From contig JAFVEX010000028.1 of assembly GCA_017475785.1 (NCBI GenBank), positions 1 through 15,115 of the forward strand: a stretch of 15,115 bases of DNA, given 5' to 3'. Shown here one piece after another: positions 5,457 to 15,115 of this stretch. Under the pieces are notes generated by a model. It did no database searches. It had not been told where the DNA came from and saw nothing but the letters and a program-made list of their open reading frames with translations. The stretch's first letter is position 1; each line of letters starts with the position of its first letter. Position numbers and translations under genes: made by a program. The DNA comes from Eubacterium sp. (lineage in GTDB: Bacteria > Bacillota_A > Clostridia > Lachnospirales > Lachnospiraceae).

Positions 5457-5756
5457 ATGGGAAAAGATATTCACACAGAGGCAGTCAATGAGTTGTTCCG
5501 CGCGGTATTGACACTGGAGACCATTGAAGAGTGTTATACATTTTTTGAGGACGCGTGCACCATCAATGAGCTGCTGTCTCTGTCACAGCGGTTCGAGGTG
5601 GCCAGAATGCTGAAGCAGAAAAAGACCTATCTGGAAATCTCCCGGAAGACGGGCGCTTCCACAGCGACGATCAGCCGTGTAAACCGCTCGCTGATTTACG
5701 GGAATGACGGCTATGACCTCGTTCTGAAAAGAATGGGAGAAAATCTGCCAGAATAA
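5457..5756 (+). CDS. yerC: YerC/YecD-type TrpR-fold transcriptional regulator (HisR candidate)
   Basis: A 99-residue all-helical protein of the YerC/YecD branch of the TrpR superfamily. The segment LSLSQRFEVARMLKQKKTY leads into a helix-turn-helix, LEISRKTGASTATISRVNRS (about residues 61-81), matching TrpR-like repressors. Members of this group have been called HisR from comparative genomics of Gram-positive histidine genes, with histidine as the likely signal; that is established for relatives, not shown here. The start has AGGAGG at 5447-5452 and a strong promoter upstream. The histidine genes hisH and hisF lie about 950 bases downstream, which fits such a role. Its last 86 bases overlap the 3' end of the convergent transporter gene. 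Confidence 0.88.
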   Translation: MGKDIHTEAVNELFRAVLTLETIEECYTFFEDACTINELLSLSQRFEVARMLKQKKTYLEISRKTGASTATISRVNRSLIYGNDGYDLVLKRMGENLPE

Positions 5757-10593: not shown

Positions 10594-10743
10594 GTGAAAC
10601 ATATTAAGACATTAAACACCAAAAGCCTTCAGTGTACTGTAAAAAAAGGCGGATGCGGCGAGTGCCAGACATCCTGCCAGTCCGCGTGCAAGACATCCTG
10701 TACAGTCGGAAATCAGGTATGTGAGCAGAAGAAAGCAGAGTAA
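10594..10743 (+). CDS. scfA: SCIFF ranthipeptide precursor (six-cysteine-in-forty-five family), with a seventh Cys
   Basis: A 49-residue GTG-started peptide. The leader MKHIKTLNTKSLQ and the core KGGCGECQTSCQSACKTSC followed by TVGNQVCE are the SCIFF signature, so recognition is firm. SCIFF is made by nearly all Clostridia and is cross-linked by its radical-SAM partner. In the Thermoanaerobacter homologue the thioether joins Cys32 to Thr37, and both residues are present here at those numbers. The six standard cysteines are 21, 24, 28, 32, 36 and 43; an extra Cys14 lies at the leader-core junction. The gene has its own promoter, a strong ribosome-binding site, and scfB downstream. Its size and GTG start make it easy to miss. 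Its biological role is unknown in the family. Confidence 0.95.
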   Translation: MKHIKTLNTKSLQCTVKKGGCGECQTSCQSACKTSCTVGNQVCEQKKAE

Positions 10744-10841: not shown

Positions 10842-10871
10842 ATGAATCAGCGATTCGCTGGTTTGATTCAT
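10842..10871 (+). promoter_or_regulatory. Hairpin ending at the scfB ribosome-binding site
   Basis: ATGAATCA (10842-10849) and TGATTCAT (10864-10871) are perfect complements. An alternative inner stem, CAGCG-ATT-CGCTG (10848-10860), competes with it by two bases. The 3' arm ends one base before the scfB Shine-Dalgarno (10872-10877), so folding could affect ribosome access. Confidence 0.5.
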
Positions 10872-10884
10872 GGGAGGAAATAGA

Positions 10885-12279
10885 TTGGTACATCTGTACA
10901 GGAATAATCAGTATAACATGGTTCTGGATGTCTGCAGCAGCGCGGTGCACGTCGTAGATGACGTCGTCTATGATGTGCTGGAAGTACTCTGCGGAATGGA
11001 AGAAACCGCGCTGGCGGGCGGGATCGGCACAGAGACTGTGCTCGGACTGGTGACGGAAGCGCTGGCGGGAAAATATCCAGAGCAGGAAATCCGTGAGGCG
11101 TGCGAAGAATGTGAAGCGCTCCGCGCCGCAGGCATGCTGTTTACGGAGGATGAATACAGGCCGGCTATTGAGGAATTTTCGCAGCGCGAGACAGTTGTAA
11201 AAGCCCTGTGCATTCACATCGCCCATGACTGCAATCTCGCCTGCCGGTACTGTTTTGCCGAGGAGGGCGAATACCACGGGCGCCGCGCGCTGATGTCGGC
11301 CGGCACCGGGCGGCAGGCACTGGATTTTCTCGTGGCGAATTCCGGAAACCGGCGGAATCTGGAGGTTGATTTCTTCGGCGGGGAGCCGACTCTGAACTGG
11401 CCGGTCGTGAAAGAACTGGTTCAATATGGAAGATCACTGGAAAAAGCACACGACAAGCGGTTCCGCTTTACGCTTACGACAAACGGGATTCTTTTGAATG
11501 AGGAGATCATGGAATTTTGCAACCGTGAGATGAGCAATGTCGTATTGAGCATCGACGGGCGGCAGCAGACAAACGACAGAATGCGCCCGTTCCGGGGAGG
11601 GCAGGGAAGCTACGCAGTGATCGTTCCGAAGTTCAGGAAATTCGCTGACAGCCGGAATCAGACGAATTATTACGTGCGCGGAACGTTCACACATTACAAC
11701 CTGGACTTTGCCGCGGATGTCCTGCACCTGGCGGATCTCGGTTTTCAGCAGATCTCTGTGGAGCCGGTTGTCGCTCCGCCGGAGATGGATTACGCGATCA
11801 GAGAGGAGGATCTTCCTCTCATCATGGAGCAGTATGACCTGCTCGCAAAGGAAATCATCCGCAGACACAAGGAAGGCCGTCCGTTTAATTTCTTCCACTT
11901 TATGATTGATCTGGAAGGCGGACCCTGTGTATACAAGAGGCTCTCGGGGTGCGGCTCAGGGACGGAATACCTGGCTGTAACGCCCTGGGGAGATCTGTAC
12001 CCGTGCCATCAGTTTGTCGGAATTGACTCATTCTGCATGGGAAATGTACGCGATGGTGTGTGCCGGCAGGATCTTGTCGGGCAGTTTAAGCGCTGCAATG
12101 TCTACGCAAAGAAGGAATGTGCCTCCTGCTTCTCCAGATTTTTCTGCAGCGGCGGCTGCGCGGCCAACGCGCATCACTTTACTGGTGATATCAACGGAAA
12201 TTACGAAATCGGGTGTGCCATGCAGAAGAAGCGAGTAGAGTGCGCACTGATGATAAAAGCCGCGCTGGCTGACGATTAA
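10885..12279 (+). CDS. scfB: SCIFF radical-SAM maturase (thioether-forming, SPASM domain)
   Basis: This enzyme uses SAM and iron-sulfur clusters to form the Cys-Thr thioether in SCIFF. The TTG start at 10885 is chosen because GGGAGG (10872-10877) precedes it and the N-terminus then reads (M)VHLYRNNQYNMVLDV, matching family members; the in-frame ATG at 10870 overlaps that ribosome-binding site. The protein has 464 residues. Residues 1-95 form the peptide-binding (RRE-like) region. The SAM cluster is CNLACRYC (Cys116, 120, 123); FFGGEPTLN follows at about 163-171. The C-terminal SPASM part has twelve cysteines (348, 356, 374, 384, 393, 404, 412, 415, 421, 425, 444, 453), enough for two auxiliary clusters. 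Its last 22 bases are the first unit of a triple repeat. Confidence 0.95.
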   Translation: MVHLYRNNQYNMVLDVCSSAVHVVDDVVYDVLEVLCGMEETALAGGIGTETVLGLVTEALAGKYPEQEIREACEECEALRAAGMLFTEDEYRPAIEEFSQRETVVKALCIHIAHDCNLACRYCFAEEGEYHGRRALMSAGTGRQALDFLVANSGNRRNLEVDFFGGEPTLNWPVVKELVQYGRSLEKAHDKRFRFTLTTNGILLNEEIMEFCNREMSNVVLSIDGRQQTNDRMRPFRGGQGSYAVIVPKFRKFADSRNQTNYYVRGTFTHYNLDFAADVLHLADLGFQQISVEPVVAPPEMDYAIREEDLPLIMEQYDLLAKEIIRRHKEGRPFNFFHFMIDLEGGPCVYKRLSGCGSGTEYLAVTPWGDLYPCHQFVGIDSFCMGNVRDGVCRQDLVGQFKRCNVYAKKECASCFSRFFCSGGCAANAHHFTGDINGNYEIGCAMQKKRVECALMIKAALADD

Positions 12280-12323
12280 AGCCGTGCTGGCTGACGATTA
12301 AAGCCGTGCCGGCTGACGATTAA
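12258..12323 (+). repeat. Three tandem 22-base units covering the 3' end of scfB
   Basis: Units at 12258-12279, 12280-12301 and 12302-12323 differ at only one or two bases. Each contains CTGGCTGACGATTAA or the CCGG variant. The first unit encodes the last scfB residues and its stop, so the copies restate the gene end. The unit is not a multiple of three, so the extra stops fall in other frames. The last unit plus the following bases can fold: GTGCC (12306-12310) with GGCAC (12327-12331), continued by GCT/AGC with one bulge. Only TTT follows, so it is a weak terminator at best. Confidence 0.9.
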
Positions 12324-12347
12324 AGCGGCACAATTTAAAAAAAACAG

Positions 12348-12475: not shown

Positions 12476-14800
12476 ATGAAGAAAAAACAAAGTATTATCG
12501 CATTAATCATTATGCTGGCTCTGACCGCGCTGCTCGGCTATACAGTTATTTTTGGCTGGGGAGAGAATCACACCGGAAGCGCGCGGCACATTCACACCGG
12601 CCTTGATCTGGCCGGAGGCGTCAGCATTACGTATGAGGCGACAGAGAGCAATCCCTCCAGCGAGGATATGGCAGACACGGTCTTCAAGCTCCAGCAGCGT
12701 GTTGACCAGTACAGCACCGAGGCGCACGCGTACAGACAGGGACTTAACCGTATCGCGGTTGAGATTCCCGGCGTCAGTGATGCTAATACGATTCTGGAAG
12801 AACTCGGAAAACCGGGCTCTCTGGAATTTCAGGATGAGGATGGAAACGTCGTTCTGGAAGGAACAGATGTAGCCGGCGCAGAAGGCGTGGCGACACAGAA
12901 CCAGACGACAGGCGAGCATCAGTACATTGTTGAGTTGACGCTGACCTCTGAGGGCTCCACAAAATTTGCGGACGCGACAGGTGAAAACGTCGGCAAGCGG
13001 ATCGCCATCGTATATGACGGGGAAGTGATCAGCAACCCGACCGTGCAGCAGAAGATTACCGGCGGCAAGGCACAGATCACAGGTATGAGTACGATCGAGG
13101 AGGCGAAGAACCTTGCCTCGAATATTCGTATCGGTTCACTTTCCCTGGAGCTCCGAGAGATTTATTCCAATGTCGTCGGCGCGCAGCTTGGCCAGGACGC
13201 GCTTTCCACAAGCGTAAAAGCAGGTATCATCGGTATCGCGATTGTCATCCTTCTGATGATCGTCCTGTTCAGGATTTCCGGTCTCGCGGCCGGCTGGGCA
13301 CTGATCCTGTTCACGCTTCTGGACGTGGCCATGATCAACGCGTTTGAGATTACGCTGACGCTGCCTGGTATCGCAGGTGTCATCCTGACGATTGGTATGG
13401 CAGTGGACGCAAACGTCATCATCTTTACCCGCACAAAGGAAGAAATCGGCGCGGGAACAAGCATCCGGGGCGCGATCCGCGCCGGCTACAGCAAGGCGTT
13501 CTCCGCAATTCTGGACGGAAATGTCACGACGCTGATCGCGGCGGCAGTGCTGGCGATTCTGGGCACCGGTACCATTAAAGGATTTGCGTACACGCTGGCG
13601 ATGGGTGTTATTATTTCCATGTTCAGCGCGCTGGTGCTTTCCCGTCTGTTTGTCAACATCTTCTACGGACTCGGCGCGAAGGATGAAAAATACTTTGGCA
13701 GAATCGGCGCCCGCACAGCGAAAAATATCGTAGGCAAACGTGTGATCGCGTTTACCCTCTCCATTATTCTGATCGCCCTCGGCCCGATCGGCATGGCGGT
13801 CAACAATGCGCGCAGCGGACGAGCGGTCAATTACAGCCTTGACTTTATCGGCGGAACTGCCACAACGGTAGATTTCGGAGAGGACGTCAGCCTGTCCGAT
13901 CTTGACGCAAAGGTTCAGCCGGTTGTGCAGGATGTGACCGGAGACGCCAACATTCAGTTCCAGAAGGTGACATCCTCTAATCAGGTCATCATCAAGACCA
14001 GAGAGCTGTCCGTCGATGAGCGTGAGCAGCTGAACACAGCCCTCGCTGACAATTTTGAAAAGGTCAACGCCGATACCATTACCGCAGAGAATATTTCTTC
14101 GATCATCAGTGGAGAAATGCGCACAAACGCAGTGCGCGCCGTCATTATCGCGATTATCCTGATGCTCTTGTATATCTGGATTCGTTTCCGCGACCCGCGG
14201 TTTGCGACGGCGGCAGTTATCGCGCTGGCGCACGATATTCTGATCGTATTCATGTTCTATGTCGTCTCCCGGTTCTCCGTCGGAAGTACGTTTATCGCGG
14301 TCATGCTGACGATACTGGGATACTCGATTAACGCAACAATTGTCGTATTTGACAGAATCAGGGAATCCATGAACGCCCGCGGCGTCAGTCTGGCGAATAC
14401 AGTCAACCAGGCCGTCACAGATACGATGACGAGAAGTATCTATACATCCCTGACAACACTGATCACACTGGTCGTGCTGTACATTATGGGAGTCCCGTCC
14501 GTCAAAGAGTTTTCACTGCCGATCATTATCGGTATTATCGCAGGTACCTATTCGTCCGTCCTGATCGCTTCTCCGGTCTGGTACACCTTTAAGACGAAGA
14601 TCGGAAAGAACCGCGTAATCGATGTTCCTGCATCCGCACCCGCAGCCAGGGCGGCACAGACCCCTGAGCCGAACGAAGCTGTACAGAAGGCAGCCTCGGA
14701 CACAGCGAATCATGTCAGCGCCGGGGAGGGCAAGAAGCAGAAGAAAGACCGCAGTGAGCTGCAGAGCATTAAGCCGAAACGCGGACGCAACCGCAGATGA
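12476..14800 (+). CDS. secDF: Fused protein-export subunits SecD-SecF
   Basis: SecDF is a membrane RND-family protein that uses the proton gradient to pull preproteins from SecYEG. The 774-residue single chain joins SecD and SecF, as in B. subtilis. SecD part: a first helix, GLDLAGGVSITYEA, the P1 periplasmic domain (about residues 30-245), and helix 4 with GMAVDANVIIFTRTKEE carrying the conserved Asp311. SecF part: NYSLDFIGGT (from about 463), IALAHDILI, and helix 10 with GYSINATIVVFDRIRE. Oddity: Ala620 stands where E. coli SecF has Asp213 (T. thermophilus Asp637). The ~65-residue C-terminal cytosolic tail is Ala-rich and then strongly basic (GEGKKQKKDRSE, KPKRGRNRR). It has its own promoter, and two hairpins follow the stop. 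It lies next to scfAB, a common clostridial arrangement. Confidence 0.97.
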   Translation: MKKKQSIIALIIMLALTALLGYTVIFGWGENHTGSARHIHTGLDLAGGVSITYEATESNPSSEDMADTVFKLQQRVDQYSTEAHAYRQGLNRIAVEIPGVSDANTILEELGKPGSLEFQDEDGNVVLEGTDVAGAEGVATQNQTTGEHQYIVELTLTSEGSTKFADATGENVGKRIAIVYDGEVISNPTVQQKITGGKAQITGMSTIEEAKNLASNIRIGSLSLELREIYSNVVGAQLGQDALSTSVKAGIIGIAIVILLMIVLFRISGLAAGWALILFTLLDVAMINAFEITLTLPGIAGVILTIGMAVDANVIIFTRTKEEIGAGTSIRGAIRAGYSKAFSAILDGNVTTLIAAAVLAILGTGTIKGFAYTLAMGVIISMFSALVLSRLFVNIFYGLGAKDEKYFGRIGARTAKNIVGKRVIAFTLSIILIALGPIGMAVNNARSGRAVNYSLDFIGGTATTVDFGEDVSLSDLDAKVQPVVQDVTGDANIQFQKVTSSNQVIIKTRELSVDEREQLNTALADNFEKVNADTITAENISSIISGEMRTNAVRAVIIAIILMLLYIWIRFRDPRFATAAVIALAHDILIVFMFYVVSRFSVGSTFIAVMLTILGYSINATIVVFDRIRESMNARGVSLANTVNQAVTDTMTRSIYTSLTTLITLVVLYIMGVPSVKEFSLPIIIGIIAGTYSSVLIASPVWYTFKTKIGKNRVIDVPASAPAARAAQTPEPNEAVQKAASDTANHVSAGEGKKQKKDRSELQSIKPKRGRNRR

Positions 14801-14802
14801 TT

Positions 14803-14820
14803 TGGCTGGAGGGCCAGCCA
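14803..14820 (+). other. Hairpin right after the secDF stop
   Basis: TGGCTGG (14803-14809) and CCAGCCA (14814-14820) form a perfect 7-bp stem with the loop AGGG. TTGTGTT follows, so it could assist termination, but the main terminator is the next hairpin. Confidence 0.55.
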
Positions 14821-14831
14821 TTGTGTTGCAG

Positions 14832-14867
14832 AATTCCGGGAGACGCATTGCGTCTTCCGGAATTTTT
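14832..14867 (+). terminator. Intrinsic terminator of secDF
   Basis: AATTCCGGGAGACGC (14832-14846) pairs with GCGTCTTCCGGAATT (14850-14864), a 15-bp stem with one G-U pair and a 3-base loop, ending in a run of five T (14863-14867). The T-run lies on the plus-strand side only, so it stops the secDF transcript. Confidence 0.8.
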
Positions 14868-14880
14868 GAAATTGAAGTTT

Positions 14881-15092
14881 GTCGGGATCAGCAGGGTGAC
14901 GAATTCAGTTTCCTCGTCTGCCCGCGAAAAGACCATCGAACCGCAGGCTAACCGTCTGTAGGCGTGCGGCCAATTCATCAAAGGCGACGATTCATTGCCC
15001 GCACGCTGACAGACGCTAAGTCTCCGTTTCTCCGATCTTTTCAGCAAGGGCATCCTCGGAAGCTGAAATTCGTCTTAATATGCCATCCCGAC
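14881..15092 (+). ncRNA. Possible structured RNA, extended rod of ~212 bases, unidentified
   Basis: No protein is supported here, but nested arms pair in order from the outside in. (1) GTCGGGAT 14881-14888 with ATCCCGAC 15085-15092. (2) 14898-14913 with 15058-15074: 16 pairs and one bulge. (3) TGCCC 14919-14923 with GGGCA 15048-15052, then GC/GC and GAAAAGA 14926-14932 with TCTTTTC 15036-15042. (4) A 63-base terminal hairpin, CGTCTGT 14953-14959 with ACAGACG 15009-15015 and GCGTGCGG 14962-14969 with CCGCACGC 14999-15006. G-U pairs at 14961/15007 and 14909/15062 favour the plus strand. I see no promoter directly before 14881 and recognise no Rfam family. A 6S-like rod, the leader of a gene beyond the window, or a palindromic mobile repeat are all possible. 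Confidence 0.4.
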
Positions 15093-15114
15093 TGCACCCG
15101 CCGTAGGGCTGCAG
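15092..15114 (+). other. Hairpin at the window end
   Basis: CTGCA (15092-15096) with TGCAG (15110-15114) and CCC (15097-15099) with GGG (15106-15108), with one bulged C, form a stem that starts where the large rod closes. Whether a T-run follows cannot be seen. Confidence 0.35.
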
Positions 15115-15115
15115 A

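What the first reader, a model, noticed from the sequence alone, without database searches (positions are those of the whole stretch)
14881..15092. Possible undescribed rod-shaped RNA downstream of secDF
After the secDF terminator, 212 bases without a credible gene contain at least five sets of complementary arms in perfect nested order (outermost 8 bp; then 16 bp with one bulge; 5+2+7 bp; a 63-base terminal hairpin with 7+9 bp). This degree of nesting is hard to explain by chance. The two wobble pairs in the main stems suit plus-strand RNA. The overall shape (closing stem, internal bubbles, long apical stem) resembles 6S RNA, and in B. subtilis the 6S gene bsrA lies in the wider secDF-recJ-relA-aspS neighbourhood, but I see no conserved 6S sequence. 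The lack of a nearby promoter also allows a leader of the next gene.
Basis: partly seen in the sequence, partly recalled or inferred. Interest (0 to 1): 0.7.

Follow-up and report, generated by a model that had tools for sequence, protein, structure and literature searches.

The report
Dispersed foldback DNA repeat behind secDF
The strongly folding stretch after secDF looks like one copy of a family of small hairpin-shaped DNA repeats scattered between genes in a group of gut bacteria, probably a mobile element rather than a dedicated RNA gene such as 6S.

Summary
In detail: window 14881-15092 folds far better than shuffled sequence (+ strand z -8.8, - strand z -10.6) and has no Rfam match. 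But it is not a single-copy RNA gene. Its core (14913-15042) is a dispersed repeat: a covariance model finds 27 distinct places in three of five genomes of a gut Lachnospiraceae genus and no others in 299 family and 295 order genomes (strict filters). Related full elements are 66-568 bp with inverted ends AAATCGGGGTTTGTCGG, present or absent at orthologous sites, often between a stop codon and the next gene, sometimes inverted at one site. A like end lies at window 14869; the element probably continues past 15115. Structure is kept by two-sided changes in 15 of 35 pairs. The window's minus strand folds better, with tandem G.A loops (25 of 25 copies). Best reading: a MITE/REPIN-like foldback mobile repeat, moved in trans through its folded strand (inferred). 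No partner enzyme or clean target duplication was found; RNA data were not available.

The parts
14832..14867 (+). secDF terminator-like hairpin with T-run (neighbour, not part of the element)
   Evidence: read from the sequence; the same hairpin underlies the two top chance-level Rfam hits; no terminator scan was run
14869..14886 (+). left terminal-repeat-like end AAATTGAAGTTTGTCGGG (3 mismatches to AAATCGGGGTTTGTCGGG)
   Evidence: the only such hit in the window; 2 hits in total in 200 shuffled windows
14881..14888 (.). 5' arm of the closing helix, GTCGGGAT
14913..15042 (-). rod III core, the dispersed structured repeat; better-folding strand is minus
   Evidence: 129 bits, E 4.4e-27; the window is one of the 11 sequences from which the model was built; BLAST copies
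14933..14942 (-). one side of the conserved tandem G.A internal loop (GGTTCGATGG on minus)
15028..15033 (-). other side of that tandem G.A loop (GGAGAA on minus)
14973..14994 (-). apical hairpin with conserved tandem G.A (TGAATC...GATGAAT on minus)
   Evidence: loose motif found in 15 of 18 copies looked at
15085..15092 (.). 3' arm of the closing helix, ATCCCGAC
15093..15115 (+). possible start of a further arm of full elements (TGCAC...GGCTGCAG); element probably continues past the window end
   Evidence: short alignments to L003, L046, L051, L077; BLAST of the whole stretch 14869-15115 against the L063 element gave no match at 1e-3

Best explanation
The feature is a copy of a family of small dispersed foldback elements found in one genus. 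Full elements have terminal inverted repeats (type A AAATCGGGGTTTGTCGG or type B AAGGGGGCTTTTAATGAGTTCGC) around one or more nested, imperfect hairpin modules; the window shows rod III and, probably, the start of a next arm. Shown: dispersal, terminal repeats, presence or absence at orthologous sites, inversion or module change at fixed sites, two-sided covariation in rod III, and one better-folding strand with recurrent tandem G.A loops. Inferred: copies spread when that strand is exposed as single-stranded DNA and its hairpin with fixed mismatches is recognised by an enzyme encoded elsewhere, as for REP hairpins; insertion is tolerated mainly between a stop codon and the next ribosome site, where the hairpins become part of the operon transcript.
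For: Dispersed copies: matches at E below 1e-7 in G001, G002 and G003; G004 only at E 0.17 and 0.58; 44 matches, which I collapse to 27 places, in 3 of 5 genus genomes. Terminal repeats: type A hits 48/15/5 in G003/G002/G001 and 0/1/1 in G004-G006, reversed-pattern control 1 in all six; type B 14 hits in G001-G003, 0 in G004-G006, control 0. 27 type-A-bounded elements of 66-568 bp. In one search, 9 of 11 filled sites have a single match across the junction in a sister genome; 7 were aligned base by base. Structure: 99.4% of cells paired, 15 of 35 pairs changed on both sides, covariation score 0.401 against shuffled mean 0.143 (0 of 500 as high) and at most 0.085 for slid partners. Strand: the modelled strand is more stable in 25 of 25 copies, mean 11.4 kcal/mol; G.U 56 against A.C 14. 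Same-site inversion: L046 against L089, flanks 99.6% and 95.8% identical, element inverted.
Against: No enzyme with these ends was found: none of 12 Y1-transposase loci carries type A or B ends; other transposase families were not searched. No consistent target-site duplication. Core copies are not AT-rich (GC 0.43-0.56). Intergenic flanks have diverged, so absence could be loss; one 'empty' site (L101) keeps a stretch like the terminal repeat, and two single matches (L071, L088) hold 36 and 51 extra bases. The window's right end is not seen, and no genome is held for the window itself, so its own copy number is unknown. Conserved mismatches and the G.U excess would also fit an RNA.
Confidence: 0.75

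Rival explanations
1. A transcribed structured RNA: the minus strand of rod III is the functional RNA fold (tandem G.A pairs, U.U pairs, G.U wobble), made as a multi-copy small RNA or antisense RNA.
For: Strand asymmetry in 25 of 25 copies, G.U 56 against A.C 14 and recurrent G.A tandems, two-sided covariation.
Against: Copies lie in both orientations and can be inverted at the same site; G.T and tandem G.A are also tolerated in folded single-stranded DNA (recalled). No promoter scan was run and no transcript data were available.
Confidence: 0.15
2. An operon-level mRNA element: the hairpin in the readthrough transcript acts as attenuator, stabiliser or RNase III site between co-transcribed genes.
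For: 21 of 27 type A elements lie between ORFs on the same strand by a longest-ORF heuristic, 10 of 27 with the upstream stop codon overlapping the terminal repeat by 2 nt; both strands of the window copy fold well. Precedent: Neisseria and pneumococcal repeats (passages of PMC2229807 and PMC3049150).
Against: The better-folding strand is antisense to the genes in 10 of 14 single-rod copies and sense in 2 (9 against 3 if L049 is read by its orthology with L038; several calls are near ties). Orthologous sites can lack the element. The position may only reflect where insertion is tolerated.
Confidence: 0.08
3. 6S RNA or another known RNA family.
For: Only the overall closed-rod shape.
Against: No gathering-threshold match in the window and no RF00013 at E up to 10 for 14780-15115; many copies per genome in relatives.
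Confidence: 0.01

Closest known systems
REPINs / REP sequences with RAYT (TnpAREP) transposases
   Same: Small dispersed extragenic hairpins; compensatory changes across the hairpin (passages of PMC3116915); conserved stem mismatches needed for enzyme activity on single-stranded substrates (passages of PMC8266576).
   Different: Much longer (66-568 bp), several nested modules, outer inverted repeats; none of 12 Y1 transposase loci carries these ends.
Bacterial MITE-like repeats: ERIC/RU-1, Correia/NEMIS, RUP, BOX
   Same: Small intergenic repeats, many with inverted ends, with strongly folding transcripts (passages of PMC2229807 and PMC3049150).
   Different: Core copies not AT-rich, no clean target duplication, interior modules inverted or changed at fixed sites, found in one genus only in the searches made. 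No sequence comparison with these families was run.
6S RNA (RF00013)
   Same: Long closed rod with internal loops.
   Different: No Rfam match; dispersed, multi-copy.

Membership tests
MITE (bacterial) | terminal inverted repeats | tested here: met
   in the family; in the window only a left end with 3 mismatches is seen
MITE (bacterial) | small and dispersed in many copies, no protein domain | tested here: met
   four ORFs over the window copy without Pfam match
MITE (bacterial) | highly base-paired | tested here: met
   window z-scores; other copies' energies without shuffles
MITE (bacterial) | AT-rich (listed in PMC3049150) | tested here: not met
   GC 0.43-0.56 for the core matches
MITE (bacterial) | target-site duplication | tested here: inconclusive
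   T precedes and A or G follows most of the 27 elements, but filled and empty sites give no clean duplication
MITE (bacterial) | autonomous partner with the same ends | tested here: inconclusive
   only Y1 transposases were looked at, none of 12 loci with these ends; contig breaks inside copies could hide one
REPIN/RAYT | Y1 transposase gene flanked by the repeat | tested here: not met
   12 of 14 Y1_Tnp matches had a locus, none with type A or B ends; the module sequences other than two motifs were not scanned there
REPIN/RAYT | GTAG tag at the REP foot | not tested
   not examined
6S RNA (RF00013) | covariance-model match | tested here: not met

The most novel reading that the evidence does not exclude
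A new class of invertible, modular foldback element: interchangeable nested hairpins with recurrent tandem G.A motifs, inserted at stop codons between operon genes, flipped at fixed chromosomal sites, and moved or flipped by a still unknown enzyme that reads the folded strand, with orientation possibly changing expression of the next gene.
Probability: 0.15. Interest if true: 0.7.

Novelty: new variant of a known kind. Interest (0 to 1): 0.42.

Why it matters
It accounts for an unannotated, strongly structured stretch in a little-studied gut genus. It gives a family with recognisable ends, filled and empty sites and same-site inversions, so how nested hairpin repeats spread and turn over in bacteria can be tested directly. 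It also warns that covariation plus strong folding, usually read as an RNA gene, can come from a dispersed DNA repeat.

Tried and rejected
Rfam at gathering score and at E<=10 (four hits, best E 0.099): nothing credible. Y1 transposases as partner: 14 matches in G001-G003, 12 loci scanned, no type A or B end. Viral contigs: the exact type A end gave 1 hit, L146, with no partner end within 1500 bases; two rod patterns gave 7 and 9 loci and a core-hairpin pattern 0; R1 matched none of these 16 loci, nor L001-L004, L063 and L030, at E<=1. Target-site duplication: none consistent. Papers: eight searches listed nothing that I recognised as this family by title or start of abstract; two searches listed no paper. 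Of the four papers cited I saw passages only; all others only as search listings.

Limits. The family and order scans scored few candidates per genome with stricter filters (G002 fell from 21 matches to 8), and their draws differ, so weak or diverged copies elsewhere could be missed. The counts use 30 of the 51 rows of an alignment fitted to the model (the better orientation of each place; 5 truncated). The 25 copies include near-identical ones and 11 that built the model. The 27 elements come from pairs of ends with up to 4 mismatches in the loci I had fetched; unpaired ends, many at contig edges, were dropped. In one search some sister genomes showed two pieces with bases between them (for example L084 in G003, L062 and L070 in G002, L066, L070 and L088 in G001), so those sites are not empty there. 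The short elements were not turned to a common strand, so no strand conclusion is drawn from them. One search found no element match between L038 and L054, nor between L063 and the window.

Full report
The 212 bases 14881-15092 form one long rod. The + strand reaches -97.2 kcal/mol (z -8.84, 0 of 200 shuffles as good) and the - strand -111 (z -10.55, 0 of 200). No Rfam family matches the window at gathering score; relaxed to E<=10 over 14780-15115 there are four hits, best E 0.099, none of them 6S. Four ORFs over the stretch have no Pfam match.

Neighbourhood. Ten window proteins were named by NCBIfam: infB, rbfA, an nrnA-like gene, truB, ribF, hisH, hisF, ung, a SpoVB/MurJ-like gene and secDF (nrnA and SpoVB are below their cut-offs). 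The closest SecDF relatives are L001 (Lachnospiraceae isolate FE2018), L002 and L003 (Eubacterium sp. MAGs from goat and roe deer jejunum), at 84-85% identity, and L004 at 69%. The gap between secDF and recJ is 81 nt in L001, 236 in L002, 418 in L003 and 173 in L004, and the rod model finds nothing in these four loci. So this rod is not a fixed feature of the locus.

It is a dispersed repeat. BLAST with 14870-15115 gave six matches of 130-139 bases at 73-76% identity in G001, G002 and G003, and shorter ones; the two G004 matches (E 0.17 and 0.58) look like chance. Eleven copies were aligned and a covariance model R1 was built on the window's minus strand. In the genus R1 gives 21, 18 and 5 matches in G002, G003 and G001, and none in G005 and G006. 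Because each rod is nearly a palindrome, many places match on both strands; I collapse the 44 matches to 27 places. In 299 genomes of the family only G002 and G001 match, in 295 of the order only G003; the draws differ and the filters were stricter. A 123-bp type A element searched by BLAST in 299 family genomes hits only G003 (2 places) and G001 (2 partial places, 63-66 of 123 bases at 88-92%).

Element anatomy. Full copies have terminal inverted repeats. Type A, AAATCGGGGTTTGTCGG with up to 2 mismatches, occurs 48 times in G003, 15 in G002, 5 in G001, 0 in G004 and once each in G005 and G006; the reversed pattern as control occurs once in all six. Type B, AAGGGGGCTTTTAATGAGTTCGC with up to 3 mismatches, occurs 14 times in G001-G003 and not in G004-G006. 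Pairing type A ends with up to 4 mismatches in the loci fetched gives 27 elements of 66-568 bp. By eye they hold nested hairpin modules in differing combinations: a core hairpin (GATGCCATTTTC...GAAAAGGCATC), a GCGGCTGC...GCAGCCGC arm and rod III. The window has a type-A-like left end at 14869 (3 mismatches in 18; 2 such hits in 200 shuffled windows). From about 15083 on it has short matches (11-27 nt, not tested against chance) to the following arm in L003, L046, L051 and L077, but 14869-15115 as a whole has no BLAST match to the L063 element at the same site in G003. I infer that the window holds the left part of a longer element. Several contigs end inside copies, so copy numbers are probably lower bounds.

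Gain and loss. Joined flanks of 11 filled sites were searched in G001-G004; nine have a single match across the junction in a sister genome, two of these with 36 and 51 extra bases. Some sites are split, hence not empty, in another sister. Seven were aligned base by base; intergenic drift hides the exact junction and no clean duplication is seen. One 'empty' site (L101) retains a stretch resembling the terminal repeat, so loss is as possible as gain there.

Position. By a longest-ORF heuristic, 21 of 27 type A elements lie between ORFs on the same strand, 4 between diverging and 1 between converging ORFs, and 1 has no right call; some calls are wrong (L003, where recJ follows on the same strand; L070, read on the wrong strand). 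In 10 of 27 the upstream stop codon overlaps the terminal repeat by 2 nt. The next start codon often follows within about 30 nt.

Same site, changed interior. At one site G003 (L046) and G002 (L089) have flanks 99.6% and 95.8% identical, yet the element is inverted (81.5% over 222 nt). At another, the rod of G001 (L038) and G003 (L049) is 90.5% identical over 74 nt but inverted, while the flanks are 75% and 83% identical; a weaker same-strand match (72% over 67 nt) reflects the palindrome. L047/L070 (410 and 123 bp) and L035/L053 keep the same orientation. L038 and L054 show no significant element match.

Structure and strand. On alignment A2 (10 distinct rows) 99.4% of cells are paired and 15 of 35 pairs change on both sides; the covariation score is 0.401 against 0.143 for shuffles (0 of 500) and at most 0.085 for slid partners; the count of further pair types is not unusual (180 of 500). 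RNAalifold prefers the minus-strand alignment (-50.3 against -36.5). Over 30 model-aligned rows, three tandem G.A/A.G motifs recur (first 19 of 24 and 19 of 25; second, less constant, 17 of 27 and 15 of 27; third 26 of 29 and 28 of 29), and G.U exceeds A.C, 56 to 14, over helix pairs and symmetric loop positions. In 25 of 25 copies the modelled strand folds better, mean 11.4 kcal/mol. Of 14 single-rod copies, the longest flanking ORFs make that strand antisense in 10 (the window with its left gene only), sense in 2, and 2 are not co-directional; several calls are near ties, and L049 would count as sense by its orthology with L038 (9 against 3). So the favoured strand is mostly not the mRNA strand.

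Mechanism. The pattern (a conserved fold with fixed mismatches on one strand, dispersal, presence and absence, inverted ends) fits a non-autonomous element recognised as folded single-stranded DNA. REP sequences are the precedent: compensatory changes across hairpins (PMC3116915) and stem mismatches that the enzyme needs (PMC8266576), both seen as passages. The enzyme here is unknown; Y1 transposases exist in all three genomes but none of 12 loci has these ends. A minus-strand RNA cannot be excluded.

Verdict. Real, conserved structure, but most likely a new variant of small dispersed foldback repeats; not shown to be an RNA gene, and not 6S.

Noticed in passing
window 10594-10743 and 10870-12279: A SCIFF ranthipeptide precursor (TIGR03973, 49 aa) followed by its radical SAM maturase (TIGR03974), upstream of secDF.
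   Followed up: partly
window 12247-12326: A 22-bp tandem repeat, 3.6 copies, at the end of and just after the maturase gene.
   Followed up: no
window 5457-5756: A small Trp-repressor-family protein (PF01371, 99 aa) just after ribF, overlapping the end of an EamA transporter ORF on the other strand.
   Followed up: no
L002 secDF-recJ gap and L076: Hairpins with arms GGAGACAGGGGACGG... sit inside or next to type-A-like ends, as if one repeat nests in another.
   Followed up: no
L093-L096: FE2018 (G001) carries arrays of other short hairpin repeats (GCATCCGCA and GCATGC types) next to type-A-like ends.
   Followed up: no
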